A stretch of 64,000 bases of DNA from Seiridium cupressi (lineage: Eukaryota; Ascomycota; Sordariomycetes; Amphisphaeriales; Sporocadaceae), in contig JARVKI010000078.1 in the NCBI GenBank assembly GCA_036674765.1, positions 7,501 to 71,500 on the forward strand, in the 5' to 3' direction. The position numbers were made by a program, and so were the translations under genes. The notes beneath the pieces are model-generated. The model did no database searches, had not been told where the DNA came from, and saw only the letters and a list, made by a program, of their open reading frames with translations. Shown here in pieces: positions 1-14,609 of the stretch. Positions within the stretch are counted from its first letter, which is position 1. Every line of letters starts with the position of its first letter.

Positions 1-52
1 ACTGTAGTGCTCCCGGACGGGCGGGCTATAGCGGCCGCAGCCCGCTAAAAAC

Positions 53-139
53 GACTTTTCCAAACTGGTATTCATCTGTTTTTTAAGGGACCACTAACCC
101 ACTAGAGACCACCGTGACTTTTCCAAACTGGTATTCATC
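53..139 (+). repeat. 24-bp direct repeat, two copies
   Basis: The segments 53-76 and 116-139 are identical over 24 bp (gacttttccaaa followed by ctggtattcatc), with starts 63 bp apart. The intervening sequence is not obviously duplicated. No function can be assigned. Confidence 0.85.
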
Positions 140-478
140 ATTCGGCAGCTTTAGTAGGCTGCTTAACCCATTGACTTTGGCTTAGTTACTCCCACTAGGG
201 GCTGACTTCGCTACTCATCACTGGGGAGGTTGCTTTCATTCTTTCGAATTGCTGCTTCCTCATGTACCCTACGACTGTGTCTGGGTCTGAAACTCGACTC
301 AGGAGGTTCTGGTGCAAGCTTTGAGTTTCCGAAAAATTATTTTGTATGGGATTTTCAAAAAATCGACTCACGGCCATACAAAAGTGATCCGGGTCTGCAC
401 ACTTTTAAGGGACATGGAGAAATTTCGAGTCGAGAATAAAGAGTGAGTGGTGCTGTCGTCCTCGAGGGTCTTTTGGGA

Positions 479-655
479 AGTGTGACTCCTGGGAGTCCAC
501 AGGTAGTGGGTGGTCAACCCACTGGTAGGTGGTCTCTGGGTACCTATAGGTGGGTAGTCCAGCACCTATAGGTGGTCCTAGGTAGGCCCTGGGTACCTAT
601 AAGGTAGGGTAGTGGTCCCCTAGGTGGTCACCTATAGGGGTCCCAACCCACTGAA
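479..655 (+). repeat. GT-rich imperfect low-complexity block
   Basis: The block is built from irregular reiterations of ggtggtc, tgggtacctata and cctatagg, including several copies of acctatagg. It looks like a degenerate tandem array rather than coding DNA. No unit of fixed length could be set. Confidence 0.5.
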
Positions 656-1076
656 AAACTTCTTTTTGGTGGTCGAACCCAACTAAACCAAGGTGCCCAA
701 GCACACGTTTTGGAACACGTGTAGGGTGGTCCCGGGCCTGGGGGGTCACCCAAGCTGGTATCTCCAGAACCGCTGCAGCGACGACATGGTTGACGGCACC
801 ATCGAGGCGGGCTCGGGGAGACGGTCAGAACGGTATATAGCTCGTTCTGTTCACTTGTGGTTTGGCTGGGCTGCGGCCGGTTGAAGGTGGGTGGGGTGGG
901 GCATGGTCGGGCTGAGGGGTGTCACGTGATCTCCCCCCTACCGTATCTCGCCCACCACAAGCCGCCCGAGGCTGTAAGTAGTGCCAATCTGCTCGGCTCG
1001 CCGTTTCCAGTCGAATGCAGCTCACCTCGTGTCTGTATGTTGTCGTTCGGGTCGGCGGCGTTTGTTCCAAGAACTG

Positions 1077-2491
1077 CTCCAGGTAGGCTGGGTGAGACTT
1101 TTGACTCATGCCAGAAAATCGGAAAATCGATTTTCGCTCGAGCCGGCCAAACTCAGGTCGCTGAGCACGCCGCTGGGCCTCGCTGGCACCGCCGGTCACC
1201 AAACCTCGTATCTCCTCGGTTGACTACCCTACACCCACCTTGCATACCGCATTCGATTCGTCGTCTTATGCCCGCTCGAAGGGTATAGGCCTGGTCCTGT
1301 GGACTCACACGGATGGTCCGCAGTCGAGCTTCGAAAAGATTTAAGCGCTCCAGGTAGGCCGGCTCGAGGGTGTATGGGGTGGGTGAATTTTGCGGAAATT
1401 TCAAGTGAAGTAGCAAGCGCATCCACCGCGTAGAGCACATGAGCAGAAGACGAATGCTACCAGGACTGGCGTGTTAGGTGACGAATTGGGTGCTGTAGGT
1501 CAAAAAGAGTTGCGTTCCAGGGTAAGTTGTCTCACGGCTGAAGTCGATTCCGGGACGATGGGAAGGTGTGAGAGCACGAGCGGCACCCCCCTCGAAAGCC
1601 CATCCTCGGGGCAGTGGTTTGGCACAGATCATATGAGATTATCAGTACTGTGTGCTTGAAAATTGCGATTTGTAGTTTTTATGTCCAAGTTGTACTGGAA
1701 AGCTGTGGACGTTTCTCACTTTTGCCTGTCGCAAACTTATGCTCTTGACACTCAGAGGTCCCTTTTTGATTTTCTCAAGAACCAGTGGGCTTAAAAATAA
1801 GATAAATATACCGTTCGAACGACGCCAGCGAGCTTGCTCTAATGCACTATTTGGCATGTCCCCAGCCCTCATGCCCACTGAGTAGTGACCAGTTGACTTT
1901 CCGCTCCGGGTAGGCTGGGTCGGACTTTTGCCATAGCTCAGCGGAACGACATGCTATGCTGAAGATAGTAGTGCCAGCCGGCTCGTATGACTGCGTAGGG
2001 CACGATGGAGTTCAGTGATGCTGTGTCAAAGTGAGATCTGAACATGTCGGTTCGGCCGGCGGTGGGCGGGATACCAGCTCCAGGTAGGTCGCACCAGGGG
2101 ACGGGGACATAAAGCAGCCTTTGCTAGGTCGTGGGCGTGAGCCAGGTTGCAGTGATTCACTTTACAACGCTGGACCAGCCTACCCGCACCCGGACGTGGG
2201 CGGACAGGATGAGCTCCGGGTAGGCCGGCTCGTCCAGCCTACCCGTACCGGTCCAGGTAGGCTGGCTCCCACTTGGCCGAGCTGCCACAGACCTTTGCGT
2301 TGGGCAGCTCCGGGGCCAGAGACAATATGGGCCCCCTCAAAACGTGCCCCCCTAAAATCAGGACCCTCAACCCGGCGATTTGGCCGGTTCTGAGCCAGCC
2401 TACCCATAACGAAGATCCGGGTAGGCTACTTACCTGGAGCGAGTCCCAGGTTCAGGTAAGCAGGCTCGTGTTCTACGGGTAGGTTGGCTCA
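1077..2491. repeat. Dispersed motif CCRGGTAGGCYGG, about ten copies, both strands
   Basis: Near-identical copies lie at about 1079, 1351, 1906, 2081, 2216, 2255, 2417 and 2476 on the plus strand. Reverse copies (CCAGCCTACCCG) lie at about 2174, 2234 and 2396. They cluster most densely at 2170-2491. Flanking bases often extend the match (ctc before, ggctc after). None was noticed in the genic part of the window. The motif could be the core of a miniature repeat or a protein-binding site. Confidence 0.6.
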
Positions 2492-2583
2492 AGTGCTACG
2501 GGTCGGCTTGCTAAGGCGTACAGCTCCTCGGATTATAATTGGTTCCGTGCTTAACACTGATTGGATAGAATTTAAAAGCAAAC

Positions 2584-3072
2584 TGTAACGAATATACTAT
2601 CGTCAGGATAAACCTTAAGATAATACACCGGTGTTGGGTTTATGCTAACAGGGTACGTAATGTAGAATAGGAATACTGAGTCTTGAAGAATAAGAATATA
2701 ATCGTTAAGGCTTGGTAGGCCTCACTTATGGGTAGATAGATGCTTAGATTGATCACTAAGGTAATGACTGTCTATGTAGGAAATGTCCATTGTATATATA
2801 TCCATTCATTCCCTTACTGATCCCGTCTTGCTCATGTTTGCTCAGTGAGCAGGACTGATCACAATCAGTGTTGATCAGTGAGTCCCACTGATCACTACTG
2901 ATCTCTTGGTCCTGATTGGTTCCTGCTGTTTGCTTGTCTCCACCATACCAGCGCCTGGTATGTTTGTTCTTTACACAGCCGCACCTGCTTGCCCTCCCTT
3001 CGCTAGCTTGGTCTGTGCTCACGGGGTAGCGTTTGTTCCGTTCCGGCCTTCTTCCAGCCCATGTTCGTAACA
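2584..3072 (+). mobile_element. Solo LTR 1 (LTR retrotransposon), TSD CAAAC
   Basis: A 489-bp element begins TGTAACG and ends CGTAACA, so it has TG..CA ends. It is flanked by a perfect 5-bp target duplication, CAAAC at 2579-2583 and 3073-3077. It is closely related to the copies at 3242-3729 and 9080-9565. No internal gag/pol region is present, so it is a solo LTR left by LTR-LTR recombination. It carries TATATATAT and several TGATCA palindromes. Small antisense frames inside it are not genes. The superfamily (Copia or Gypsy) cannot be decided. Confidence 0.92.
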
Positions 3073-3105
3073 CAAACGGTAAGTTAATTTTTATAACTAA
3101 GAGCG

Positions 3106-3747
3106 AAACTATCACGGCACTAAGACGCCACTAAGGCGTTAGGGGTACAGCGCCTACAAAAAGCCGTTATACTAGTTTAAAACTTAGTTTCCTCCTTTCT
3201 TCTTCGTGTAATAACAATACACTAAATCACTAGCATATAGGTGTAACGAATATACTATCGTCAGGATAAACCTTGGGATAATACACTGGTGTTGGGTTTA
3301 TGCTAACAGGGTACGTAATGTAAAATAGGAACACTGAGTCTTAAAAATAAGAATATAATCGTTAAGGCTTGATAGGCCTCACCTATGGGTAGATAAATGC
3401 TTAGGTTGATGACTAAGGTAATGACTGTCTATATAGGAAAGATCCATCGTATATATATCCATTCATTCCCTTACTGATCCTGTCTGCTCTCGTTCGCTCA
3501 GTAGATCTCCGCTGAGCACAGCTGAGCACGCTCGGTCCTGATCAGTTGAACTCTACTGATCACTGCTGAGCTTGCTTCTGATTGGTCCCCGTCCTGGTCC
3601 CATATCCGCCGTGTTAGTGTTTAGCGTGTTTGGTTCTTCCGCCGGTTCTTTTGCAGCTGCCTGCGGCTGGTTGCGTGCGGGGTATTACTTATTCCGCTCC
3701 GGGGTCTTGGTTGGGTCATGTTCGTAACAATAGGGCCGTGATAAAAA
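3106..3747 (+). repeat. Left arm of ~145-bp inverted repeat, split by LTR 2
   Basis: Bases about 3106-3241 plus 3730-3747 (the LTR 2 insertion removed) form the reverse complement of about 9991-10138. Over the first ~127 aligned bases roughly 14 differ, and all but one are transitions, mostly with A/T in the right copy. LTR 2 inserted inside this arm and so is younger than the repeat. The outer end is uncertain because similarity fades before 3106. The arm ends about 12 bp from the NLR stop codon. It could be a terminal inverted repeat of a composite element or one of two separate miniature elements. Confidence 0.75.
3242..3729 (+). mobile_element. Solo LTR 2, TSD ATAGG
   Basis: A 488-bp copy with the same TGTAACG start and CGTAACA end as LTR 1, in the same orientation. 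It is flanked by a perfect duplication ATAGG at 3237-3241 and 3730-3734. It interrupts the left inverted-repeat arm and ends 29 bp before the antisense stop codon of the NLR gene. It differs from LTR 1 mostly in the GC-rich 3' half. Confidence 0.93.
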
Positions 3748-3758
3748 CCGATGTCCTT

Positions 3759-6700
3759 TTAACAGCTAGTTTTCCAATCTTTTAGGTCAAACCGAGTAGA
3801 CAGAGTATACGGATGTTCAGGCCCTAATACGCGCTCCCAAAGTTGAAGACAAGCCTCTAACAAAGCTACCGCTTCGTCCTTCCGAGCCTGACCATACCAA
3901 ATAATGGCAAGATTATGCATACTATTAAGGGTGTCTGGGTGCTCCTCCCTAAATGCCTTTGAACATTTAGCAAGTTCCGTAGCCTGTAATTCCTCGGCCT
4001 TTTCCCACCGGCCCTGATTCCTGTACGTCGACGCCAGGTTAGCCATGCTAATGAGCGTCGAGGGATGATCGGCCCCGAGCTTCGTCTTGCTCGTCTCTAT
4101 CACTTATATAAACAGCTTCTCAGCCTCTTCCCACCGGCCCTGGTTCTTATACGTCGACGCCAGGTTAGCTATGCTGGTAAGCGTATCGGGATGATCGGCC
4201 CCGAGCTTCGTCTTGCTCGTCTCTATCACTTGTATAAACAGCTTCTCAGCCTCTTCCCACCGGCCCTGGTTCTTATACGTCGACGCCAGGTTAGCTATGC
4301 TAATGAGCGTCGAGGGATAATCGGCCCCGAGCTTCGTCGTGCGAGTCTCTATCACTTCCACCTCTAGCTTCTCAGCCTTTTCCCACCGGCCCTGGTTCTT
4401 ATACGTCGACGCCAGGTTGGCCATGCTGGTAAGCGTATCGGGATGATCGGCCCCGAGCTTCGTCTTGCTCGTCTCTATTACTTGCATAAACAGCTTCTCA
4501 GCCTCTTCCCACCGGCCCTGGTTCTTATACGTCGACGCCAGGTTAGCCATGCTAGTAAGCGTATCGGGATGATCGGCCCCGAGCTTCGTCTTGCTCGTCT
4601 TTATTACTTGTATAAACAGCTTCTCAGCCTCTTCCCACCGGCCCTGGTTCCTATACGTCGACGCCAGGTTAGCCATGCTAATGAGCGTCGAGGGATGATC
4701 GGCCCCGAGCTTCGTCGTGCGAGTCTCCATCACTTCCACCTCCAGCTTCTCAGCCTCTTCCCACCGGCCCTGGTTCTTATACGTCGACGCCAGGTTGGCC
4801 ATGCTAGTGAGCGTATCGGGATGATCGGCCTCGAGCTTCGTCTTGCTCGTCTCTATCACTTGCACAAACAGCTTCTCAGCCTCTTCCCACCGGCCCTGGT
4901 TCCAAAGCGTCGACGCCAGGTTGGCCATGCTGGTAAGCGTATCGGGATGATCGGCCCCGAGCTTCGTCTTGCGAGTCTCCATTACTTGCACAAACAGCTT
5001 CTCCGCTTTATCCCATTGACCAATCAGCCTATATGCTGATGCCACCATACCTATAGCCCACAAGACCTCTTCGTCATCTGCTTTAAACAATTTCTTCCTC
5101 GCCTTCATAGCCAAGACCGATAGCTTCTCTGCCTCTGTCCCGTTACCTATTCGCAAGCAATACCAGGCCGTCCGATATAGCACAGTGGCCCATTCTCGTA
5201 ACGCATCTTGTACCTTTGGCGTCTTTGCTGCTGCCGATTGCGCATGCGGAAAAAGTGCCCGACATGTAACCCAGTTCTCGTATTCTCCCGTTGGCATCTC
5301 TTCACAGAGTTTTATAAGAAATCGACCTCTCCACTGCTCCTTTTGCTTGTAAAGTTCAAGCCATTCCAGCATCGCTAACTGCACTAGTCTATGCATCTCA
5401 AAAGTACACCCGTCCTCATTCGCAATAATAAACGAATAGTTTCGCAGTACTAAAACATCGTCCTCAAACCTATTAATCTCACTCTCACTCTCCTCTAATT
5501 GTATCTCGGTGGAATCGCTATCGCTCCACTCATTTTCATGATCGTCATCTTCACCCTCCTCTAAACCGTCAATTTGTACCTCATGGGAAACTAGCTGATT
5601 CGTTGGATCCTGATCGCGTAGTAAGATCTCAGGAATACCTTGCCGATCGCAGAAGCTCATAAGCGATAGCAAATCTGCCGCCGACGGTCTGACCTGCCGG
5701 ATATGCTCGAACGATATCTGCCATGTGATCAAGATGGAATTCTTCGCGCTCGTATCTCGACGAAGTTTCCCACCTTCATAACTAAGGAGACCGGTCTTTT
5801 TCCGATCACTTGCTTGATAGTTCTTAAGGTATTGCTGTAAGGAATATCGCGGCCATCGCTGGGAGATATAAGCCGCCGCCTGGACGATAGCAAGCGGTAT
5901 ATACTCTAGCGCGGCAACCAGTGTAGCAACGAGCTCGACCGTATCTTCAGCTACAGGTTGTTTAAGCTTCCGTTCAAACAGCATTACTGCATCTCCGACA
6001 TTCATTGGATCGACGGCGACAATGTCTGTATCTTCGACTAGCTCTAACGCTGCGCTTATGCCCCGCGATGTGACTAGGACCGATCCATGCTGGCAGTGCG
6101 GGATATACCATAAAAGCGGTCTAGAGTCGGTATTCTCCTCCTTGACCGACTGTGCTTCGTTTCCCGTACTCGTCGATATCAGGAAACCGGCGTCGTCGAC
6201 ATTGTCCAGAATCAGCACCCACGGTCCCTTCGTCTCATCACGCAGCCAGTCGTGCACTAGCTGGAATATGTTGGCCTTTGGGTTCTGCCGTCCATAGATC
6301 TTGACGCAGTTGGCAATGTCTCGGACACTCTGCTCGAAGCGGGCGGCGTTGCTCGCGTGGGCCCAGAAGACCCATGTTTGGGGCGACCGTTCTCGGATGC
6401 GGTACGCGTATTCAATGGCGAGTTGCGATTTGCTTACGCTGTTAGCCACCGCTCGGTCTATACTGGAACTGACTTACCCAACACCACCAAGTCCGACGAG
6501 TGCAGTCCGAGATCCGGGCCGGGTGTGCTTTTGATTGATCTGATCGAGTATGGTTCCTTGATCGACGGCGGTCGCTCGGTCGACGAAGTCTGTGTCGCGA
6601 CTGAACGGGATGACGATCGACGGCTTCGGCGGGGTTTCAGGACGTTCTACATGTGGCACGTCAGTTTAGATGATTATCCTAATTAGACCCGTGTGTGGAT

Positions 6701-6809
6701 CCATTTTACCGGGAGGGGCATGGTGGTGGAACTTTGCATTGACAGGGCCGTTGGCGACGCCGACTTGGAAGCCAGCATTAGCGTCTCCAAAGCTTATTCC
6801 AGTTGCCAT
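3759..6809 (-). CDS. NLR (STAND) protein: amyloid motif, NB-ARC, TPR array; in-frame stop
   Basis: A fungal NOD-like receptor. Exons are 6710-6809, 6478-6646 and 3759-6432, with introns of 63 and 45 bp. Splicing restores the P-loop G-L-G-G-V-G-K-S. Residues 5-27 form a short motif with core G-F-Q-V-G, followed by an HHH and proline stretch. Next come NB-ARC features (P-loop, Walker B with L-I-L-D-N-V-D-D, a T-S-R sensor, a P-L-A-I motif, an M-H-R motif), a linker, and tandem TPRs of 42 residues. A single TAA at 4106-4104 replaces the CAA seen in sister repeats. Translation would stop at 865 residues; the open frame beyond it would give about 980. In the HELLP/PNT1 and HET-S/NWD2 systems such receptors oligomerise on ligand binding and template amyloid folding in a partner. 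The divergent neighbour carries the matching motif. The gene may be a recent pseudogene, a truncated but working allele, or use readthrough. Confidence 0.88.
3984..4991 (-). repeat. TPR-coding tandem array, eight 126-bp units
   Basis: Eight near-identical 126-bp units (42 residues each, TPR type with G-R-W-E-E-A-E-K-L and A-D-H-P) encode the ligand-binding end of the NLR. More divergent units continue below 3984. Two unit types alternate with period three: P-D-T-L-T-S, P-D-T-L-T-S, then P-S-T-L-I-S preceded by a T-R-T-T-K segment. This gives a 378-bp higher-order repeat. High internal conservation of this kind is known for repeat domains of fungal NLRs and is linked to rapid reshuffling of specificity. 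Confidence 0.9.
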
Positions 6810-7054
6810 TGTAAAAAGTTAGCTGCAGGTAATCGCGGTAGCAGCCACGAACTTCAAAAATTGTAGCAGTTGAGTCGTCACGTAGGTGGCTACGTTTTCT
6901 CATGGGAACGGCTGAACTTAAGGCCAGGCTGGGTCGGAGATATATTTATCCCCTCCCGAATTTAATTGTCAAAGAGGGGATGTGAAATGGCCGTTTCCAT
7001 TCCTGAGCAGCATTGATATAAACCTTTCGGGGCGGGTAGGGCAACATACTCCAT
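6810..7054. promoter_or_regulatory. Shared divergent promoter of the NLR/effector pair
   Basis: Only 245 bp separate the two start codons, which face away from each other. The segment must contain both promoters and leaders. No clear TATA box or known operator was recognised. A divergent layout is usual for cognate NLR/effector pairs and would allow joint expression. Confidence 0.6.
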
Positions 7055-7977
7055 ATGGCAGATCCTCTTGGCATCGTTGCTAGCATCGTCGGAGTCACTG
7101 TTCCAGCTTTAGAAGGAACGAGACTTCTTCTAGACATTTTAGGGGAGATCAAAGATGCACCGAAGACCATTACACGTCTTTCGGGTGATGTTCGTTCAGT
7201 CGATGCAGCATTGAACTTGCTTAATGGTGTGGAAGAGCGAGAGTGGTTATTACTTGGCACCACCGTCGCCGAACAGTCCAAGACGACTATTAGCAGCTAC
7301 AGACAAGCGTGCGACCTTTTCAGGACTGATCTCCAGCGGTGGACGAAGCATTCGGAGGATGGGAAGCTGGCATGGCGGGACCGGGCAAACGTAGGATTTC
7401 TAAAGAAGGCTCAAATCAAAGCCATGTCGGGGCAGCTTCAGAATTGTCAGCTCTCGATCAACACCATCACCAGCATAGCTACTCTGTATGTGGCTTAAGA
7501 ACAAGCACGTTAAGATAGTGACTAGCTAACAATGCATACAGGTATAGCTCCGTTCGTAACAGCCACCTAACAGAAGAGATAAAGAAGTCTATCTCTGTTA
7601 AACAGGATGAGGTTAACGGGGCTATTATTACTACAGATCAAAAAGTAGTAGTATTGCAGAATAAGCTCAAAGACCTTGAACTCAGCAGCGACGAGGAAGA
7701 AGGGGATATGTCTCTGCAAGGCAAAGCTAAGGTCATGCAGCGCTTAAAGGACGAACGTGACGCGCTCAATGCGTCTCTGAAACTTCTGCAGGAGTTACTG
7801 GCTAAATCGCAGGAGGAATCAGTTGCAAAAGCTGCCTTAGGTAGCCAAAATAGTTCGACGACAATAAGCTTCGGCACGAACTCCTCAGGTTTCCAGGCAG
7901 GGATTATTAATGGATCTGTCAGTGGCCAGACCTTTGGAGGAAGTAGTTTGTCCCAGCCTTCGAAAGCTGGCCGATGA
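7055..7977 (+). CDS. HeLo-like-domain cell-death effector with C-terminal amyloid motif (HELLP-like)
   Basis: Two exons, 7055-7485 and 7542-7977, joined over a 56-bp intron, give 288 residues. The N-terminus (M-A-D-P-L-G-I-V-A-S-I-V-G) and the helical ~220-residue body match the fungal STAND N-terminal/HeLo-like class. The hydrophobic first helix is the part thought to insert into membranes in such proteins. A charged coiled-coil-like stretch (about 175-235) leads to a C-terminal motif at 252-275 with core G-F-Q-A-G. That motif shares about 12 of 23 positions with residues 5-27 of the adjacent NLR. By family knowledge, NLR activation would nucleate amyloid in this tail and unmask the N-terminal domain at the membrane, causing cell death. 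The motif resembles the PP class (related to RHIM) more than the HET-s class; that assignment is inference. Confidence 0.85.
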
Positions 7978-8149
7978 GGCTTTGTCACATGGAGACGGCT
8001 GAAACCCGGAGGCCAAGAGGTTATGTTCAATGTAGCGAATTTAACGAAGTCTTAAGTACAACCCCAATTTTGTGAGCAACTGTAATATCATGATACAAAT
8101 ATCACATCTTCCCGTCGTAGCCTTATCTTCGATCCCCTTCGCTACTACA

Positions 8150-9079
8150 CTACATTGGCGCTATTAGGGCTCTCAGTGGTGACCGCACGATTTCATCCTG
8201 CTCAACCTGTCCTTCGCCCACCCATGTCACCAGTCCCAGCGCGCTTATTTCTTGCTCACTTTCCGCTGCCTGCCTTATCGGCACCACCTTTGGCTCCAGC
8301 GCAGATATCCCTAGCGCAGTACTCTTCCTCTTCCGAGCAGGGCTTTTCTTGCCTAAGGGAGCTTCTTTTCGCTTTAAGCCGTATGCGGCTTTCTTGGCCT
8401 CTTTGGCAGCCTTTTTAGCCTCTTTCACGGACTCTTTCGCAACACGCTCCGCTCGTGCCCTCTCTAGGTCCTCGAAACTCATAACCCTTGCCGTCCCTAG
8501 TATTTCTGACCTAGTTGATCGGCGAACTTTAGCTTCGTTGTTTATCTGGGCTAAGAATTGATTATGTTCATGAAGAAGAGCACGCTCGGCAAAAGATAGT
8601 TGGGCCGCATTAGCAAGCTTTTGTAGGTGCCTTTGTAAACGTTGTTTGCTCATCTCATCAAGCATAGAAGCATCCTGTTGGATCAGCTTATGAAGCGACG
8701 TAACAGCTTCTGCTGACACTGGGGTTATAGGGGTTGGCGGTACTTGATCTTGCATACAGCAGCCTACATTCACCTCGAAGGCTTGAGGGGCTGTCAATGT
8801 AGTAAGATGCTTCGGTATATCACAGAGGACTTTGTTAGGGTTGAAAGGGAATAAACCGGCCTTGGTCCATCCAGCTCGTATGTTCCTAGACGTGAGCGCT
8901 TGATCCCGTGCGGGACTATATAAATAGGTGAAATGCTCCTTGCCGATTGTTCCAACACATCCTCGCTCAAGCCGTTCGACCTGGTCGCGGTAGGCTGCCT
9001 TTGATGGGTCAAATACGGAGATGTCACAGGGCTGAAGTTTATGGGAGGTGTGAGAAGGGAGACGGCACAGGATGATGTT
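8150..9079 (-). pseudogene. 5'-truncated pogo/Fot-type DDE transposase
   Basis: The frame encodes the C-terminal half of a pogo/Jerky-like DDE transposase. It starts at the conserved L-P-S-H-T-S-H-K-L-Q-P-C-D segment, which holds the third catalytic acidic residue. It continues through the N-I-R-A-G-W-x-K-A-G-L-F-P-F-N-P motif and ends in a basic tail. The helix-turn-helix/CENP-B domain and the first two catalytic residues are missing because LTR 3 abuts at 9080. The remaining ~309 codons have no stop, so decay is recent or protected. No terminal inverted repeat of this element was seen downstream. Confidence 0.85.
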
Positions 9080-9565
9080 TGTAACGGATATACTATCGTC
9101 AGGATAAACCTTAGGATAATACACTGGTGTTGGGTTTATGCTAACAGGGTACGTGATGTAGAATAGGAATACTGAGTCTTGATGAATAAGGATATAATCG
9201 TTAAGGCTTGATAGGCCTCACCTATGGGTGGATAGATGCTTAGATTGATCACTAAGGTAATGACTGTCTATGTAGGAAATGTCCATTGTATATATATCCA
9301 CTTATTCCCTTACTGATCTTGTTTGCTCATGTTTGCTCAGTGAGCAGAACTGATCATGATCAGTGTTGATCAGTGAGTCTCACTGATCACTACTGATCAG
9401 TGGCTCTGATTGGTTCCTGCCGTCGTCTTGGCTCCCCCGTGTTGGTGTCTGGTATGTTTGTTCCTTGCACAGCCGCAGCCGCTTGTCTCCTACTGCCAGC
9501 CTGGTCTGTGCTTGCGGGGTGAGGTTTATTCCGTTCCGGCTTTCTCTTGACCCATGTTCGTAACA
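9080..9565 (+). mobile_element. Solo LTR 3, no target duplication
   Basis: A 486-bp copy with the same TGTAACG..CGTAACA ends as LTRs 1 and 2. The flanks differ (ATGTT before, GCAGG after), so no target duplication remains. Together with the half transposase on its left, this suggests recombination between LTRs of two insertions, or a deletion ending at the LTR, that removed the 5' half of the transposase. Confidence 0.88.
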
Positions 9566-10289
9566 GCAGGGTGGCTCGCCACACAGTGATGGATGTTATT
9601 AAATTTAAATATAATTAATAATTTATTACTTAAACTTTAATAATCGTTAAACTTTTAATTTAAATTTTATAATATATTTTCTTTTATTTTTAATTTACTT
9701 TTAAAAATATATTTAATATTTATATTATATATTTTTTTAATTTAAACTTTTTTAATTTAAATATTACGTTATTATTATAATATTAAATTTAATATTTATT
9801 TATTTATTATATTAAAAATATTTTTATAAATATAATTATTAAATTATAATTATAATTTTAATAAATATATTATAATATTAAAAGATTTTTTTAAATATTA
9901 TTATATAAAAAAGAAAATTATAATTTAAAATTTAAAATAACGTTTTATATATACCGCGTTAATAATATTTAAAAAAACGTTTTAATATTATGTTACGGTT
10001 TTATATACTAGTGATTTAATATATTATTATTATACGAAGAAGAAAGGAGGAAACTAAGTTTTAAACTAGTGTAACGGCTTTTTATAAGCGCCGTACCGCT
10101 AACGCCTTAGTGGCGTTTTAATACCGTGACATTTTATATTAAAATATAATATTATTATAATTATTTTAAAAATTTAAATATAATTTTAACTTTTTTTTCT
10201 TTATATAATAATAATATATTTTATGTTAAAATATAAAACTATTATAAAATAATTATAATTTTATTTATATTAATTATTAATGGTTACTT
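9566..10289. repeat. Very AT-rich, RIP-like block
   Basis: From about 9590 to 10290 the sequence is nearly all A and T on both sides of the right inverted-repeat arm, with no usable frame. Such sharp AT islands in Pezizomycotina are usually repeats destroyed by RIP. The block stops exactly at the stop codon of the Hel2-like gene, which has normal composition. Confidence 0.8.
9991..10138 (-). repeat. Right arm of ~145-bp inverted repeat
   Basis: This is the reverse complement of the left arm at about 3106-3241 plus 3730-3747. It is the only moderately GC-containing part of the AT-rich block. Most mismatches to the left arm are C-to-T or G-to-A changes in this copy, as expected if it shared in RIP. 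It contains a small hairpin (taacgcc, then ttagt, then ggcgt). Confidence 0.75.
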
Positions 10290-12674
10290 TTAACCCCATT
10301 GTACGAGTACTTGTTTCCGGCTTTGTTTTCCTTTTTTTTTATTTTGGATATTATTACTTTCTTCTCCCTCATTTACTAGTGACTCAGTCCGTGCTGTACT
10401 AGTTGAGCCACTACCTCCCCAATTGAAACCTGTATTTCTACCACCTGTGTCCCTCCGAACGGCTCCGCTACCGTAACCGAAGATTGTTGTAGTCGGCTTG
10501 GGAGCTGCAGGGAGCGCAGGAAAGCTATCGTCACGCCCGGCTGGCTTGCTACCCCCTTTAGCTGTGGTTTGTGACGCACTGCCCGAGTTCCAGCGAGCCG
10601 CTGTTGGGGGAGGCCGAGAGCTACTAGACGGCAGAGCTGGAAAAGATGCTGCAAGCGGAACGGGCCTTGTAGATCCGGTTGCCGCCGACCACGTTGTGGC
10701 CTGTGCAGACGATCTCTGCGACTGTTGTGTTGAGCTTTTCAACTTGAGTACCCTTGTTGTATGTCGTTGGGACGGCACGGCAGTAGTAGTGGCTGGAGAG
10801 CTGGCTGCGGCTGTAGCCCAACCACTGTTGGATGTCGTGGCACCGTGCATCCCTGCCAGGCCTGGCAGTGTTGGATAGTCCTCGTTGATGGCACGCCAGT
10901 CGTTCCACGCTTTCCGCACTTGTTCCGCCTTGGTTTTGTCCTCAAACAGATCAGCTACCTCTCTAATTAATGTGCCAAGCGCTGTTGTGGAAGTTTCTGT
11001 AAAGAGTGAGAAGAATGAGTCGACCAGGGTGGCGGCTGATACTTTGTTCTTCTGGTAGGACGAGATGTGAGCACGGAATGTGGAAACCTTGGTTGCATCG
11101 TTCTGCAGCAGGTTAGAAGCACGCTCTATTACAGCGGCATGACGCATAAGACGGGCGCGCTCTTCGGGCGTCAAATTGGGGTCCACGAGCCTAACGCCTT
11201 CCGTCTCCGCGGTAGGGGGTGCACTGCTCGAGGATGCCGCGGTAGGATTATGACGCTGGGACGAAGAGAGTGTTGGTATTGGTGTCGACGTCGAGATGGG
11301 AGGGTTGGAGGATAGCTGGCCGCCGAATGTACGGTTGGAAACGGACTGCGATGAATGAATGGCCATTTGTCGTTGAAAGGCCAGCTGATCACGTCGCAAC
11401 GGCTGTGCAGAACTAGCTGGTATCGGTTCAGCGTTGGGGTCGCGGCCGCGTCCTCGCCCGTCCCTTTCCCTATCACCTTGTCCGCGGGTGCCACCTCGGC
11501 CTCCTCCTCCGCCTCCACGTCTTTCTTGTTGGTAAGATGAGCGGAAGTCGAATCCTGCCATGTCAACCAGCCTGGCATCCCTACGCACGTCCTTGGAAAG
11601 TGAGCTTCCGTGTTCGCTCAACTGGTGTGCCTTCAAGTCCAGTTCAGATGCGAAAACAACAAATTTCTTCTCCTGGCATTCACGGTCGACACAAGGATGA
11701 TGGTCTCTTCGAAAGTGCTGCTCAAGGGCGTTATAGTCGACATAGTAGTGAGGTTGTCTTGGATCTTCGCGGTCACAGAGGAAGCATCTCTCATGCTTAT
11801 TGCGGCAATGCTCATACAACTTATCATCGTCATAGAATCGCTGTCCACAAAACGCACACAACGGATGACCCCTGAAACCAGTCTGGTCAATTGCACCAGG
11901 ACGATCGTCGCCATGCCGCATGTGCCTCTCGAGCTCTTTATCCGCAAATAGCTCGTGCTCGTGTGTAAACACCTTCTTGTTGCGGGTACATAAGTCGCAC
12001 ATCTTCTTGTGGTGAACACTACGAACATGGCGATGTAGATCTGGCCAACCCAGACCGGCAAAGTCGCACTCGTCGTTGGGGCAATTGTACCGCAGCAACA
12101 GAACAGTGTCGCCCACGATATCTTCATTGTTGTATCGAATCCCAACATTCTCGTCAGTCGTGCTGATGTCTGGTGCTTCCGCCGAGTAGTCTTCAAATCG
12201 CTTGGTAGCATCGTCGGTAAAGATCACATAGGGTGCAGCTGTTCGACAGTGGGCGCATTCCTTGTTCTTGTACAGTGCTCGCATTCGGAGGGCACATATG
12301 TGACACGTTCTATGGTTGCAAGGCGCAACTGACTGATGGATCACAGGGCTGGCGCAGATGAAGCAGACCTCTGCCTCGACGTCATCTTCTCCCTCGCCCT
12401 CGACGATATTGGGAACTGTCGGGGTAGGGATCGGTTGTTTTGATGAAGCTGGACCTTGCGATACTGTATCCGGTAAGGCATTCACATCTATTGCTCCCGC
12501 CATCGCAGTTCCCCCTCCCCTACTGCGCCCGCCTCGTTGTGGCCTGCCTCCTCTTGAACTGTTTTGTGGCCCGCGGCCCCTGCCTCTGCCCCTGCCTCGA
12601 CCGTGATTTTCACCACGTCCATGGCCTGCACCTCCGCCCACTGGCGCACCGGATATGTTTGCCTCCGAAGCCAT
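10290..12674 (-). CDS. HEL2: Hel2/ZNF598-type RING and C2H2 zinc-finger E3 ubiquitin ligase
   Basis: Single exon, 794 residues from the ATG at 12674. That start follows the usual N-terminus with a Gly/Arg-rich (RG) stretch; an in-frame ATG 186 bp upstream is probably leader. A RING finger lies at about 104-145 (C-F-I-C, C-N-H, C-H-I-C, C-A-H-C-R), followed by several C2H2-like fingers rich in C-x2-C and H-x3-5-H. A long Ser/Pro-rich region ends in a basic K-K-K-G-K segment and the C-terminal Q-V-L-V-Q-W-G. The family ubiquitinates small-subunit ribosomal proteins on collided ribosomes and triggers ribosome-associated quality control. The gene ends directly against the AT-rich block, so its 3' UTR must lie in AT-rich DNA. 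Confidence 0.92.
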   Translation of the reverse strand: MASEANISGAPVGGGAGHGRGENHGRGRGRGRGRGPQNSSRGGRPQRGGRSRGGGTAMAGAIDVNALPDTVSQGPASSKQPIPTPTVPNIVEGEGEDDVEAEVCFICASPVIHQSVAPCNHRTCHICALRMRALYKNKECAHCRTAAPYVIFTDDATKRFEDYSAEAPDISTTDENVGIRYNNEDIVGDTVLLLRYNCPNDECDFAGLGWPDLHRHVRSVHHKKMCDLCTRNKKVFTHEHELFADKELERHMRHGDDRPGAIDQTGFRGHPLCAFCGQRFYDDDKLYEHCRNKHERCFLCDREDPRQPHYYVDYNALEQHFRRDHHPCVDRECQEKKFVVFASELDLKAHQLSEHGSSLSKDVRRDARLVDMAGFDFRSSYQQERRGGGGGGRGGTRGQGDRERDGRGRGRDPNAEPIPASSAQPLRRDQLAFQRQMAIHSSQSVSNRTFGGQLSSNPPISTSTPIPTLSSSQRHNPTAASSSSAPPTAETEGVRLVDPNLTPEERARLMRHAAVIERASNLLQNDATKVSTFRAHISSYQKNKVSAATLVDSFFSLFTETSTTALGTLIREVADLFEDKTKAEQVRKAWNDWRAINEDYPTLPGLAGMHGATTSNSGWATAAASSPATTTAVPSQRHTTRVLKLKSSTQQSQRSSAQATTWSAATGSTRPVPLAASFPALPSSSSRPPPTAARWNSGSASQTTAKGGSKPAGRDDSFPALPAAPKPTTTIFGYGSGAVRRDTGGRNTGFNWGGSGSTSTARTESLVNEGEESNNIQNKKKGKQSRKQVLVQWG

Positions 12675-14609
12675 TCTCTGATATCCGAGGTGTGTGACAG
12701 AAATGTGTGCAACGTGGCTCTTAAAAGATCGAAGTGGTGAGGGATTCGTTTGCCCCGCAACAGTGGAAGGTAAAACCGTGGCGTGAATTTGCTGCAAAGT
12801 CGTACAATGGGAACGCAGCTGTGCCTCCAGTGATGGCTGACTTCTGAATGAAGATGCCACCGCTCTCGGAAACTGTGTTTGATTGTCGATGCCGCTGCTC
12901 GTATGGATAATGCAAGCAGAGTGCTTCCGCTGGTTGACAAATGGTGGGGCAATTTGATGAGCTCATTCAATTTGACGCCGGTGCGAAGGACGAAGGCCCC
13001 GCCAGAATTTTACGTCGGCATGACTCAGGATGATGGCTGTGGCTGTGGCTGTGTAAAGTTGTGGCGCACGTGGCTGACTCACGCCGTCAAAGGATCGAAT
13101 ATGCGATGTCGATTGCCATATCATTCCATATTGTATCCTTATATCTGATGGGCCTCCAATCAGAGTTGGTCACAAACTCATTCGTGTCTCTGCCGTCACA
13201 GGAGTTTTCTGTTGCGTGCCTGTCGAAAAGAAACGTTCGGCCTTGGAGCCTCGGAGTAAATATCTTCCCCAGCCATTACACCAAGCGATTGAACATGGTG
13301 CTGAACCTGACCAGAGAGGAGAGTCCATGGGAGCAGAAGGATAGGTATTGCATTGGGTTCATTCGCAATCACTTGCACTTCATATGAATGGTATCGGGGT
13401 GTCAGATATCCGTTGAGTTCTCTCGCGACAATTTTGATGAACTACGAACATGACCAGCCCGAACGTAGCTCGGCGGCTGCGATTATGGACAAATTAGTCA
13501 ACGCATGCACAGTGGTGCGCAGGGTGGGCGATATCTGTCCGCACAACAATTTGACATCCCATTCATAGAGGGACTGCAAGTTTGCCTCCTGCTTAGATGG
13601 TTACGTACATGTAGCATGCAGATGAGCAAACTTGGAGCAGTGGAAGTACCTGCCGCTAAACCTTCTCCGGCATGACTTAGTCAGCTCATGTAGGGGCACG
13701 TCCCGGGACAGCCCCATATTTTACCCGCGTGATCGGGATCAACCGCCATTGGCTGGTGAAGCTAAAAATCCTATTGGGTGCCGGGGCCTTTCATTCAGCC
13801 CGCTGATCAGTGCCGTCGTATGGTTCGTTCAGTGCATCTCCACAATCGCGAACGAGCGTCAACTCCATTGAGGTCGTGAATGGGAATCCCAGCCACTTTA
13901 TTGTTGTTGTCGACGTGCAGTCTGTTGCTCAGGCCAAGATAGGAACAGCTGCGCACGTGTGTCTCTCGTTGGCATTCCTGCTGAACTTGGAGCACCACGG
14001 CCAGTCCTCCGAACCATTCCATTCACAAAACGTGGAGCTTCATCCAAGCCGCGTCCGGTCAAGCTTCGACGACGACGACGACTATACCACGAGTTACCTT
14101 ACCTCTCCACCTCTCTATCTAATCGACGTTCACGCTTCCGTCGCCATCTTGCTCGCTCGAATCCGAGTTGGGACAAGCTTGCTGAATCACGACTCGTCGT
14201 TTATACATTTGCCATTGATAAAACCCAAAGTATCGACACTTCTCAGCAATACCTCCTCCTTATACACCGTAGCTGAACCGATCACCATTACCTGTCGATA
14301 GATACAAGTCGCTTCAGGTCGCGCCGCAGTGCTATCGGGGCATCATTGCAGCCAGGTCCTGGTGCGCATTACCACTTGGCAAACTCCAGACGCGGGATTG
14401 ACGCTGGTGAAATCTGGGACTTCGTAATGGTGTAGCAGCCGACTACACAAGCCCCTATTCGAGATTTCCTTTTTTTTCTCAGTGTCCAGCTGCTCACAGG
14501 TCGTACTTGCCAGGCCGATTGCAGCAACACCTGGCGAAACGTCAAGACTACAACCCGCAGCTTCCGACGACTTTTCCACACAACTCATCGCCCCATCAAC
14601 TTTCTCAAG
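12675..14609. other. Divergent intergenic region, no gene seen
   Basis: About 1.9 kb separates the Hel2-like and SWIB genes, which are transcribed apart. Short frames on both strands lack conserved character. A ggctgt triplet of repeats lies near 13032. Both promoters should lie here. Confidence 0.55.

What the first reader, a model, noticed from the sequence alone, without database searches (positions are those of the whole stretch)
3759..7977. Divergent NLR / HeLo-like effector pair sharing one amyloid-type motif
The spliced NLR N-terminus (residues 5-27) and the C-terminus of its divergent neighbour (residues 252-275) share I-S-F-G, G-F-Q-x-G, N-G-x-V and a final F in the same order and spacing, about 12 of 23 positions. 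The neighbour has a HeLo-like N-terminal domain. Known systems of this layout (HET-S/NWD2, HELLP/PNT1) use the shared motif to pass an amyloid fold from the activated NLR to a pore-forming effector. The Q-x-G core resembles the PP motif class, which is compared to mammalian RHIM. This particular pair has both genes, a 245-bp shared promoter and a clear motif match. I cannot tell whether it has been described.
Basis: partly seen in the sequence, partly recalled or inferred. Interest (0 to 1): 0.95.

Follow-up and report, generated by a model that had tools for sequence, protein, structure and literature searches.

The report
Fungal receptor and cell-killer gene pair
Two neighbouring fungal genes encode an immune-type receptor and a predicted membrane-targeting killer protein that share a short amyloid-type motif; this looks like a new example of the known HELLP/PNT1 cell-death system, with a stop codon inside the receptor's repeat domain.

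Summary
The - strand gene (exons 6809-6710, 6646-6478, 6432-4104) encodes an NLR with ISFGDANAGFQVGVANGPVN from residue 5, an intact P-loop after splicing, and a near-identical TPR array. The + strand neighbour (7055-7485, 7542-7977; 288 aa) has a HeLo-like (PF17111) domain and ends in ISFGTNSSGFQAGIINGSV. A profile of homologues' effector motifs finds this NLR and a profile of homologues' NLR motifs finds this effector; the next open frame of the window scores E=2.1 or worse. Homologous pairs occur in many ascomycete genera, four with consecutive gene numbers. The layout is that of HELLP/PNT1 (PP motif class), shown in Podospora to kill by amyloid templating. So: a new member of a known kind, probably from Seiridium or a close relative. 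It is a CAA to TAA difference in the context of repeat-induced point mutation, so the receptor may be shortened or dead in this strain. The S. cupressi allele has fewer repeats and no stop. The deposited S. cupressi models mis-splice both key elements. Partner-specific co-variation of the motifs was tested and not found. Amyloid formation and killing are inferred.

The parts
6710..6809 (-). NLR exon 1, ATG at 6809, encodes the N-terminal amyloid-type motif
   Evidence: S. cupressi P0121 identical over 565 of 565 residues after taking out 2 residues at the intron-2 acceptor
6726..6797 (-). NLR motif ISFGDANAGFQVGVANGPVNAKFH (PP-type)
6647..6709 (-). NLR intron 1, 63 bp, GTAAAA...TAG
   Evidence: GxQxG lies upstream in the same predicted protein in 91 of 120 listed homologues
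6478..6646 (-). NLR exon 2
6433..6477 (-). NLR intron 2, 45 bp; acceptor AAG. The alternative CAG at 6439 would insert VS into the P-loop
   Evidence: P-loop GxGGxGK[ST] in 115 of 120 homologues
4104..6432 (-). NLR exon 3: NTPase core and TPR array, ending at in-frame TAA 4104-4106 (865 aa product)
3759..4103 (-). Same frame beyond the stop: further TPR units and a C-terminal end that matches S. cupressi P0121
3867..5174 (-). 126-bp TPR repeat array, 9 registered copies; internal copies 84-94% identical to the reference copy
6810..7054 (.). 245-bp intergenic stretch between the divergent start codons, presumed shared promoter
7055..7485 (+). Effector exon 1: HeLo-like domain (PF17111), hydrophobic first helix
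7486..7541 (+). Effector intron, 56 bp, GTATGT...CAG with CTAAC branch-like site
7542..7977 (+). Effector exon 2: helical stretch, linker, C-terminal motif, stop
   Evidence: structural proxy P0003
7864..7935 (+). Effector motif ISFGTNSSGFQAGIINGSVSGQTF (residues 252-275)
7841..7888 (+). In-frame 48-bp GT...AG stretch equal to what the deposited S. cupressi model (P0001) leaves out; it holds the first part of the motif

Best explanation
This is a two-gene amyloid signalosome of the HELLP/PNT1 type. The NLR is thought to bind a ligand through its TPR array, oligomerise through its STAND NTPase, and bring its N-terminal motifs together so that they fold as amyloid. That fold would template the matching C-terminal motif of the HeLo-like effector, whose hydrophobic N-terminal helix would then insert into the fungus's own membrane and kill the cell, as in non-self recognition or defence. 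Shown here: gene structure, shared motif, domain content, recurring pairing. Inferred: oligomerisation, amyloid templating, membrane killing, biological trigger. In this strain the NLR's TPR array is cut by a stop codon at 4104-4106, so the receptor is either a shortened allele or inactive.
For: Reciprocal motif profiles from homologues. GxQxG in 91 of 120 listed NLR homologues within the first 120 aa and in 70 of 120 listed effector homologues in the last 40%. PF17111 at E=2.2e-14 and TPR_10 at E=1.7e-103. Effector homologous over nearly its length to Sordariales proteins of HELLP size: Podospora australis P0262, 38.8% over 276 aa; Dichotomopilus funicola P0265, 40.5% over 279 aa. Consecutive gene numbers for NLR and effector in four fungi: Coleophoma BP6252_09458/09459, Leptodophora ACEPPN_000485/000486, Trapelia MMC30_009217/009216, Neopestalotiopsis G7054_g1707/g1708. 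Eighteen of 63 NCBI-named effector rows share their longest-contig length with a listed NLR. In 49 aligned effectors the motif (mean column identity 0.76) is as conserved as the HeLo-like domain (0.76-0.82), while the 7 residues before it (0.51) and the acidic linker (0.65) vary. The motif region is predicted unstructured in the monomer (pLDDT under 50 at 242-278 of proxy P0003). Experimental precedent: PMC7885112.
Confidence: 0.88

Rival explanations
1. Relic receptor: the pair is of the HELLP/PNT1 type, but the NLR is inactive in this strain because the stop removes the last TPR units and the C-terminal end; the effector is intact and could be activated only from another source of the motif.
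For: TAA at 4104-4106 in a frame that is otherwise open to 3759. The S. cupressi allele P0121 runs to the same C-terminus without a stop and with 4 matches to a repeat signature against 9 over the whole window frame, 7 of them before the stop. The other repeats have CAA where this one has TAA, a CpA to TpA difference. Twelve of 17 transition columns among 7 core repeats lie in RIP context against 6 of 56 invariant C/G columns (Fisher p=3.8e-6; I added the stop column, which holds three bases, by hand; without it 11 of 16, p=1.1e-5). RIP-inactivated NLR-family pseudogenes are published for Podospora (PMC1805685, passages).
Against: The first 565 residues are identical to S. cupressi apart from the acceptor choice, so there is no general decay. 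Seven repeat-signature matches remain before the stop, and pnt1 of wild Podospora isolates has 4 to 10 repeats (PMC7885112 figure legend). In the Podospora pseudogenes the repeats themselves were not heavily RIPed. The repeat columns share ancestry, so the p-values overstate. The stop could be an assembly error in a repeat array.
Confidence: 0.3
2. The motif belongs to the sigma family rather than PP.
For: The NLR N-terminus matches PF17046 (Ses_B) at E=0.017; two listed NLR homologues (P0225, P0235) and one effector (P0269) carry PF17046 in the precomputed domains.
Against: 15.5 bits against a cut-off of 23.2; the effector motif gives no match. In the published survey most PP motifs lie at NLR positions 5-9 and sigma motifs have their relative majority at 50-99 (PMC9815663, passages). 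The partner is a HeLo-like protein beside a TPR-type NLR, as in hellp/pnt1.
Confidence: 0.04
3. The shared motif is chance similarity of two Gly/Ser-rich termini.
For: The motif is short and Gly-rich.
Against: Reciprocal profile hits, 0 of 2000 shuffles, only two six-frame pattern hits in 64 kb, and recurrence of both motifs in linked homologues.
Confidence: 0.01
4. Splicing gate: the 48-bp in-frame stretch in the effector motif and the two in-frame acceptors at the NLR P-loop are used alternatively in vivo, giving disarmed isoforms of both partners.
For: The deposited S. cupressi models fit exactly these choices (P0001 lacks 16 residues including ISFGTNSS; P0121 reads GVGVSKS) and both keep the frame.
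Against: Automatic gene models can pick false introns (general knowledge); no RNA was available; 115 of 120 homologues show the intact P-loop and many other effectors keep the segment.
Confidence: 0.04

Closest known systems
HELLP/PNT1 of Podospora anserina (and CgHELLP/CgPNT1 of Chaetomium globosum)
   Same: Adjacent genes; HeLo-like effector with a C-terminal GxQxG motif; NLR with N-terminal motif, NTPase and TPRs; variable TPR number (PMC7885112, parts 1 and 2 and passages). Sordariales homologues of the effector (P0258, P0262, P0265, P0266) are 39-41% identical.
   Different: Motif core GF(Q)(A/V)G, against GMQIG in Sordariales homologues P0265 and P0266 (P0262 has GIQTS, P0258 GFMIG). The P. 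anserina and C. globosum proteins themselves were not compared. No third partner (SBP lipase) with a PP motif was seen in the 41 loci examined. The NLR has a stop inside the TPR array.
HET-S/NWD2 (HRAM class)
   Same: Two-gene effector and NLR layout with a shared amyloid motif and a membrane-targeting effector (PMC7885112 part 1; PMC5485727, passages).
   Different: HeLo rather than HeLo-like domain, two-fold HET-s repeats, NACHT and WD repeats. A pair resembling this class, with ankyrin repeats, lies elsewhere in the same genome.
Mammalian RHIM (RIPK1/RIPK3) and MLKL

Membership tests
HELLP/PNT1 (PP-class) signalosome | Effector with N-terminal HeLo-like domain | tested here: met
   PF17111 E=2.2e-14, 53.8 bits against cut-off 27.2
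HELLP/PNT1 (PP-class) signalosome | Same short motif at effector C-terminus and NLR N-terminus, with GxQxG core | tested here: met
HELLP/PNT1 (PP-class) signalosome | Pseudo-palindromic core NxGxQxGxN (as worded in PMC9815663) | tested here: inconclusive
   NLR NxGxQxG, effector SxGxQxG; in both the last N is one place later. Strict form in 5 of 157 effectors and 6 of 120 NLRs of the family, so the wording seems to describe a logo, not a rule; the NLR07 profile was not available
HELLP/PNT1 (PP-class) signalosome | NLR with NB-ARC and TPRs | tested here: inconclusive
   TPR met; P-loop GLGGVGKS met; NB-ARC Pfam model 14.8 bits, below 23.5, but PF00931 assigned in close homologues such as P0122
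HELLP/PNT1 (PP-class) signalosome | Effector and NLR genes adjacent | tested here: met
   245 bp apart, divergent
HELLP/PNT1 (PP-class) signalosome | Motif forms amyloid and templates the partner; effector kills at the membrane | not testable with these tools
   Needs bench work
HET-S/NWD2 (HRAM) | HeLo domain and HET-s 218-289 repeats | tested here: not met
   Effector matches PF17111; neither PF14479 nor PF11558 is among its 5 listed families at E up to 0.1
Sigma (Ses_B) motif | PF17046 match over cut-off | tested here: not met
   15.5 of 23.2 bits for the NLR end, none for the effector end

The most novel reading that the evidence does not exclude
The pair is armed and disarmed by splicing: an in-frame 48-nt intron cuts the amyloid motif out of the effector and a competing acceptor breaks the P-loop of the receptor, so that one splicing change disables both halves together. 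The deposited models of a near-identical locus fit exactly these two choices.
Probability: 0.04. Interest if true: 0.6.

Novelty: new member of a known kind. Interest (0 to 1): 0.3.

Why it matters
It extends a well-studied fungal cell-death system to a probable Seiridium genome and to a family with a common GFQAG/GFQVG motif core, which differs from the GMQIG of two Sordariales homologues and from the RHIM core. Natural variants of this kind could help show which residues set amyloid seeding specificity. The stop codon and the repeat-number difference fit receptor repeats evolving under repeat-induced mutation. It also shows that automatic annotation can hide such pairs: both deposited models of the sister locus break the functional element.

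Tried and rejected
Partner-specific co-evolution of the two motifs was tested twice. The first run (25 pairs) had some rows out of register and gave no signal (4661 of 5000 shuffles as high). The corrected run (17 pairs) also gave none. For it I picked one NLR per effector by hand and left out the extra NLRs on the same contig and two effectors (P0024, P0039).

Same-contig linkage rests on equal longest-contig length, not on mapped positions. The tally 19 of 64 is therefore 18 of 63 plus that row. Only the best 120 of 1340 NLR hits were visible, so misses are not informative.

Sequence search of PDB chains with the effector, its family profile, the motif profile and the NLR gave nothing useful. 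Foldseek gave no match at E of 0.001 or less. VIA-align 2 rows are of the kind that may mean only a common arrangement; a HET-S HeLo structure is not among the 50 rows shown. Rfam found nothing in 1-14000. A search of the plasmid collection found nothing and was of no use for a fungal locus. A genome search with PF17046 gave one weak place elsewhere and not this pair.

Literature, held library only. Seiridium with NLR and genome: 0 papers. Seiridium with heterokaryon incompatibility: 0. Seiridium with amyloid: 13 papers hold both words, 5 listed, all taxonomy by title. The two HELLP searches listed no Seiridium title. The view that this pair is undescribed rests on these five searches. Passages of PMC7889193 and PMC12258605 were seen and added nothing that changed the reading.

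The source organism is inferred from near-identity to Seiridium cupressi proteins, not looked up. The branch-site argument for the AAG acceptor and the view that gene predictors pick false introns are recalled knowledge.
Full report
What is there. The window lies in a 45.4-Mb genome of 228 contigs. Two divergent genes start 245 bp apart. The + strand gene has exons 7055-7485 and 7542-7977 with a 56-bp intron, and encodes 288 residues. The - strand gene has exon 1 at 6809-6710, a 63-bp intron, exon 2 at 6646-6478, a 45-bp intron and exon 3 from 6432. Intron 2 has two possible in-frame acceptors. The AAG at 6433 gives GLGGVGKS; the form GxGGxGK[ST] is found in 115 of 120 listed homologues. The CAG at 6439 inserts two residues and breaks it.

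The stop. The receptor frame meets TAA at 4104-4106 after 865 residues and is then open again to its next stop at 3759-3761. The stretch beyond the stop encodes further TPRs and ends in the same sequence as the Seiridium cupressi protein P0121. P0121 agrees with the window protein at 565 of 565 upstream positions once the two acceptor residues are taken out. By one repeat signature P0121 has 4 matches, the window frame 9, of which 7 lie before the stop. Nine registered 126-bp copies are seen in the window. Within 7 core copies, 12 of 17 transition columns lie in CpA or TpG context, against 6 of 56 invariant C or G columns (Fisher p=3.8e-6). I counted the stop column in by hand because it holds three bases; without it the figures are 11 of 16 and p=1.1e-5. 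The columns are not independent events, because copies share ancestry, so the p-values are only a guide. The stop is a CAA to TAA difference of that kind. RIP-inactivated pseudogenes of an NLR family, with a stop at the beginning of the 7th WD unit mentioned, are reported for Podospora, but there the repeats themselves were not heavily RIPed (PMC1805685, passages).

The shared motif. The NLR carries ISFGDANAGFQVGVANGPVNAKF from residue 5, the effector ISFGTNSSGFQAGIINGSVSGQT from residue 252. Ungapped identity is 11 of 24; the best ungapped 23-mer gives 12, reached by 0 of 2000 shuffles. A profile of 69 effector motifs finds the NLR exon at E=6.6e-7, and a profile of 90 NLR motifs finds the effector frame at E=2.7e-6, among 1934 sequences; both S. 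cupressi proteins were left out of the profiles. Among 120 listed homologues each, 91 NLRs hold GxQxG in their first 120 residues and 70 effectors hold it in their last 40%. The effector list includes truncated rows, and some full-length rows have a changed core (such as GFAAA or GFNAG), which the pattern misses.

Relatives and pairing. The effector has 139 homologues at E of 1e-5 or less, the NLR 1340 at 1e-10 or less; the best is in Seiridium cupressi for both. Four fungi show consecutive gene numbers for the two partners, and 18 of 63 NCBI-named effectors share the longest-contig length with a listed NLR. A profile search with ten divergent members reached Sordariales proteins of HELLP size; Podospora australis P0262 is 38.8% and Dichotomopilus funicola P0265 is 40.5% identical to the window effector over nearly its full length. 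The P. anserina and C. globosum HELLP proteins themselves were not among the rows seen and were not compared. No second copy of either gene was found in the own genome; the best-scoring other NLR match is 32% identical and the only other effector match is 38% over 65 residues.

The NTPase. The spliced NLR scores below the Pfam cut-offs for NB-ARC and NACHT. The assignment rests on the P-loop and on close homologues that carry PF00931, such as P0122 at 71% identity.

How it most likely works. In P. anserina a PP-motif NLR beside a HeLo-like protein forms a cell-death signalosome: the motif regions of both form prions, convert each other, and send the full-length effector to the membrane region (PMC7885112, parts 1 and 2 of the text and passages). 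The layout here is the same, so the same mechanism is the best explanation. Every step after sequence and domain content is inference. The trigger is unknown.

PP or another class. In the published survey most PP motifs lie at NLR positions 5-9, go with pore-forming and enzymatic effectors, and sigma motifs lie further in (PMC9815663, passages). The window NLR fits PP. The sigma Pfam model scores below its cut-off. The strict PP wording NxGxQxGxN is not met, but only 5 of 157 effectors and 6 of 120 NLRs of this family meet it.

Result against a stronger claim. If each pair kept its own motif, linked partners should resemble each other more than shuffled partners. They do not (17 pairs; also the flawed first run). 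The motif looks family-wide rather than pair-specific, so cross-talk among related pairs cannot be excluded. In 41 loci from this genome, picked by NB-ARC, HeLo-like and HeLo matches (10 of the 15 HeLo matches had a locus) and by the two proteins, with about 1.5 kb on each side, no further PP-type motif was found. The rest of the genome was not searched for the motif.

Annotation warning. The deposited S. cupressi effector P0001 lacks 16 residues including the first part of the motif, equal to a 48-bp in-frame GT-AG stretch at 7841-7888 of the window, and the NLR P0121 has the residues given by the P-loop-breaking acceptor. A survey relying on these models could miss the pair. Alternative splicing is possible but not supported by any RNA seen here.

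Verdict.

Noticed in passing
L045 (own genome C228:198000-207500), 1115-1987 and 2793-5223, - strand: A second amyloid-type pair: a HeLo protein with the HET-s 218-289 region (PF14479 E=7.2e-50, PF11558 E=9.9e-24) next to an NPHP3_N (NACHT-like) and ankyrin-repeat NLR whose N-terminal exon holds a short HET-s-like stretch (PF11558 E=0.3, below cut-off).
   Followed up: partly
window 2584-2822, 3241-3479, 9080-9318; arms 3106-3239 and 10002-10135: LTR-like dispersed repeats bracket the gene pair, and a DDE_1 transposase remnant lies within 8150-9217; several frames from about 10.3 kb onward match housekeeping-type families.
   Followed up: partly
own genome: 15 HeLo (PF14479) and 9 HeLo-like (PF17111) six-frame matches at E of 0.001 or less, counted exon by exon, several with stops inside.
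   Followed up: no
homologues P0005, P0006, P0008, P0014, P0068: Some effectors keep the motif frame but replace the central Q (GFAAA, GFAAA, GFAAG, GFNAG, GLVVG in that order). Sources: a metagenome, Exophiala, Chaetothyriales, Leptodophora, Chaetothyriales.
   Followed up: no
homologues P0142, P0191, P0205, P0217, P0240: NLR relatives that carry PNP_UDP (PF01048), SesA (PF17107) or HET (PF06985) domains in the precomputed list and have no GxQxG in their first 120 residues, as if the N-terminal module had been swapped.
   Followed up: no
window 10290-12962 -: ZNF598-type RING and zinc-finger protein next to the repeat-rich stretch.
   Followed up: no
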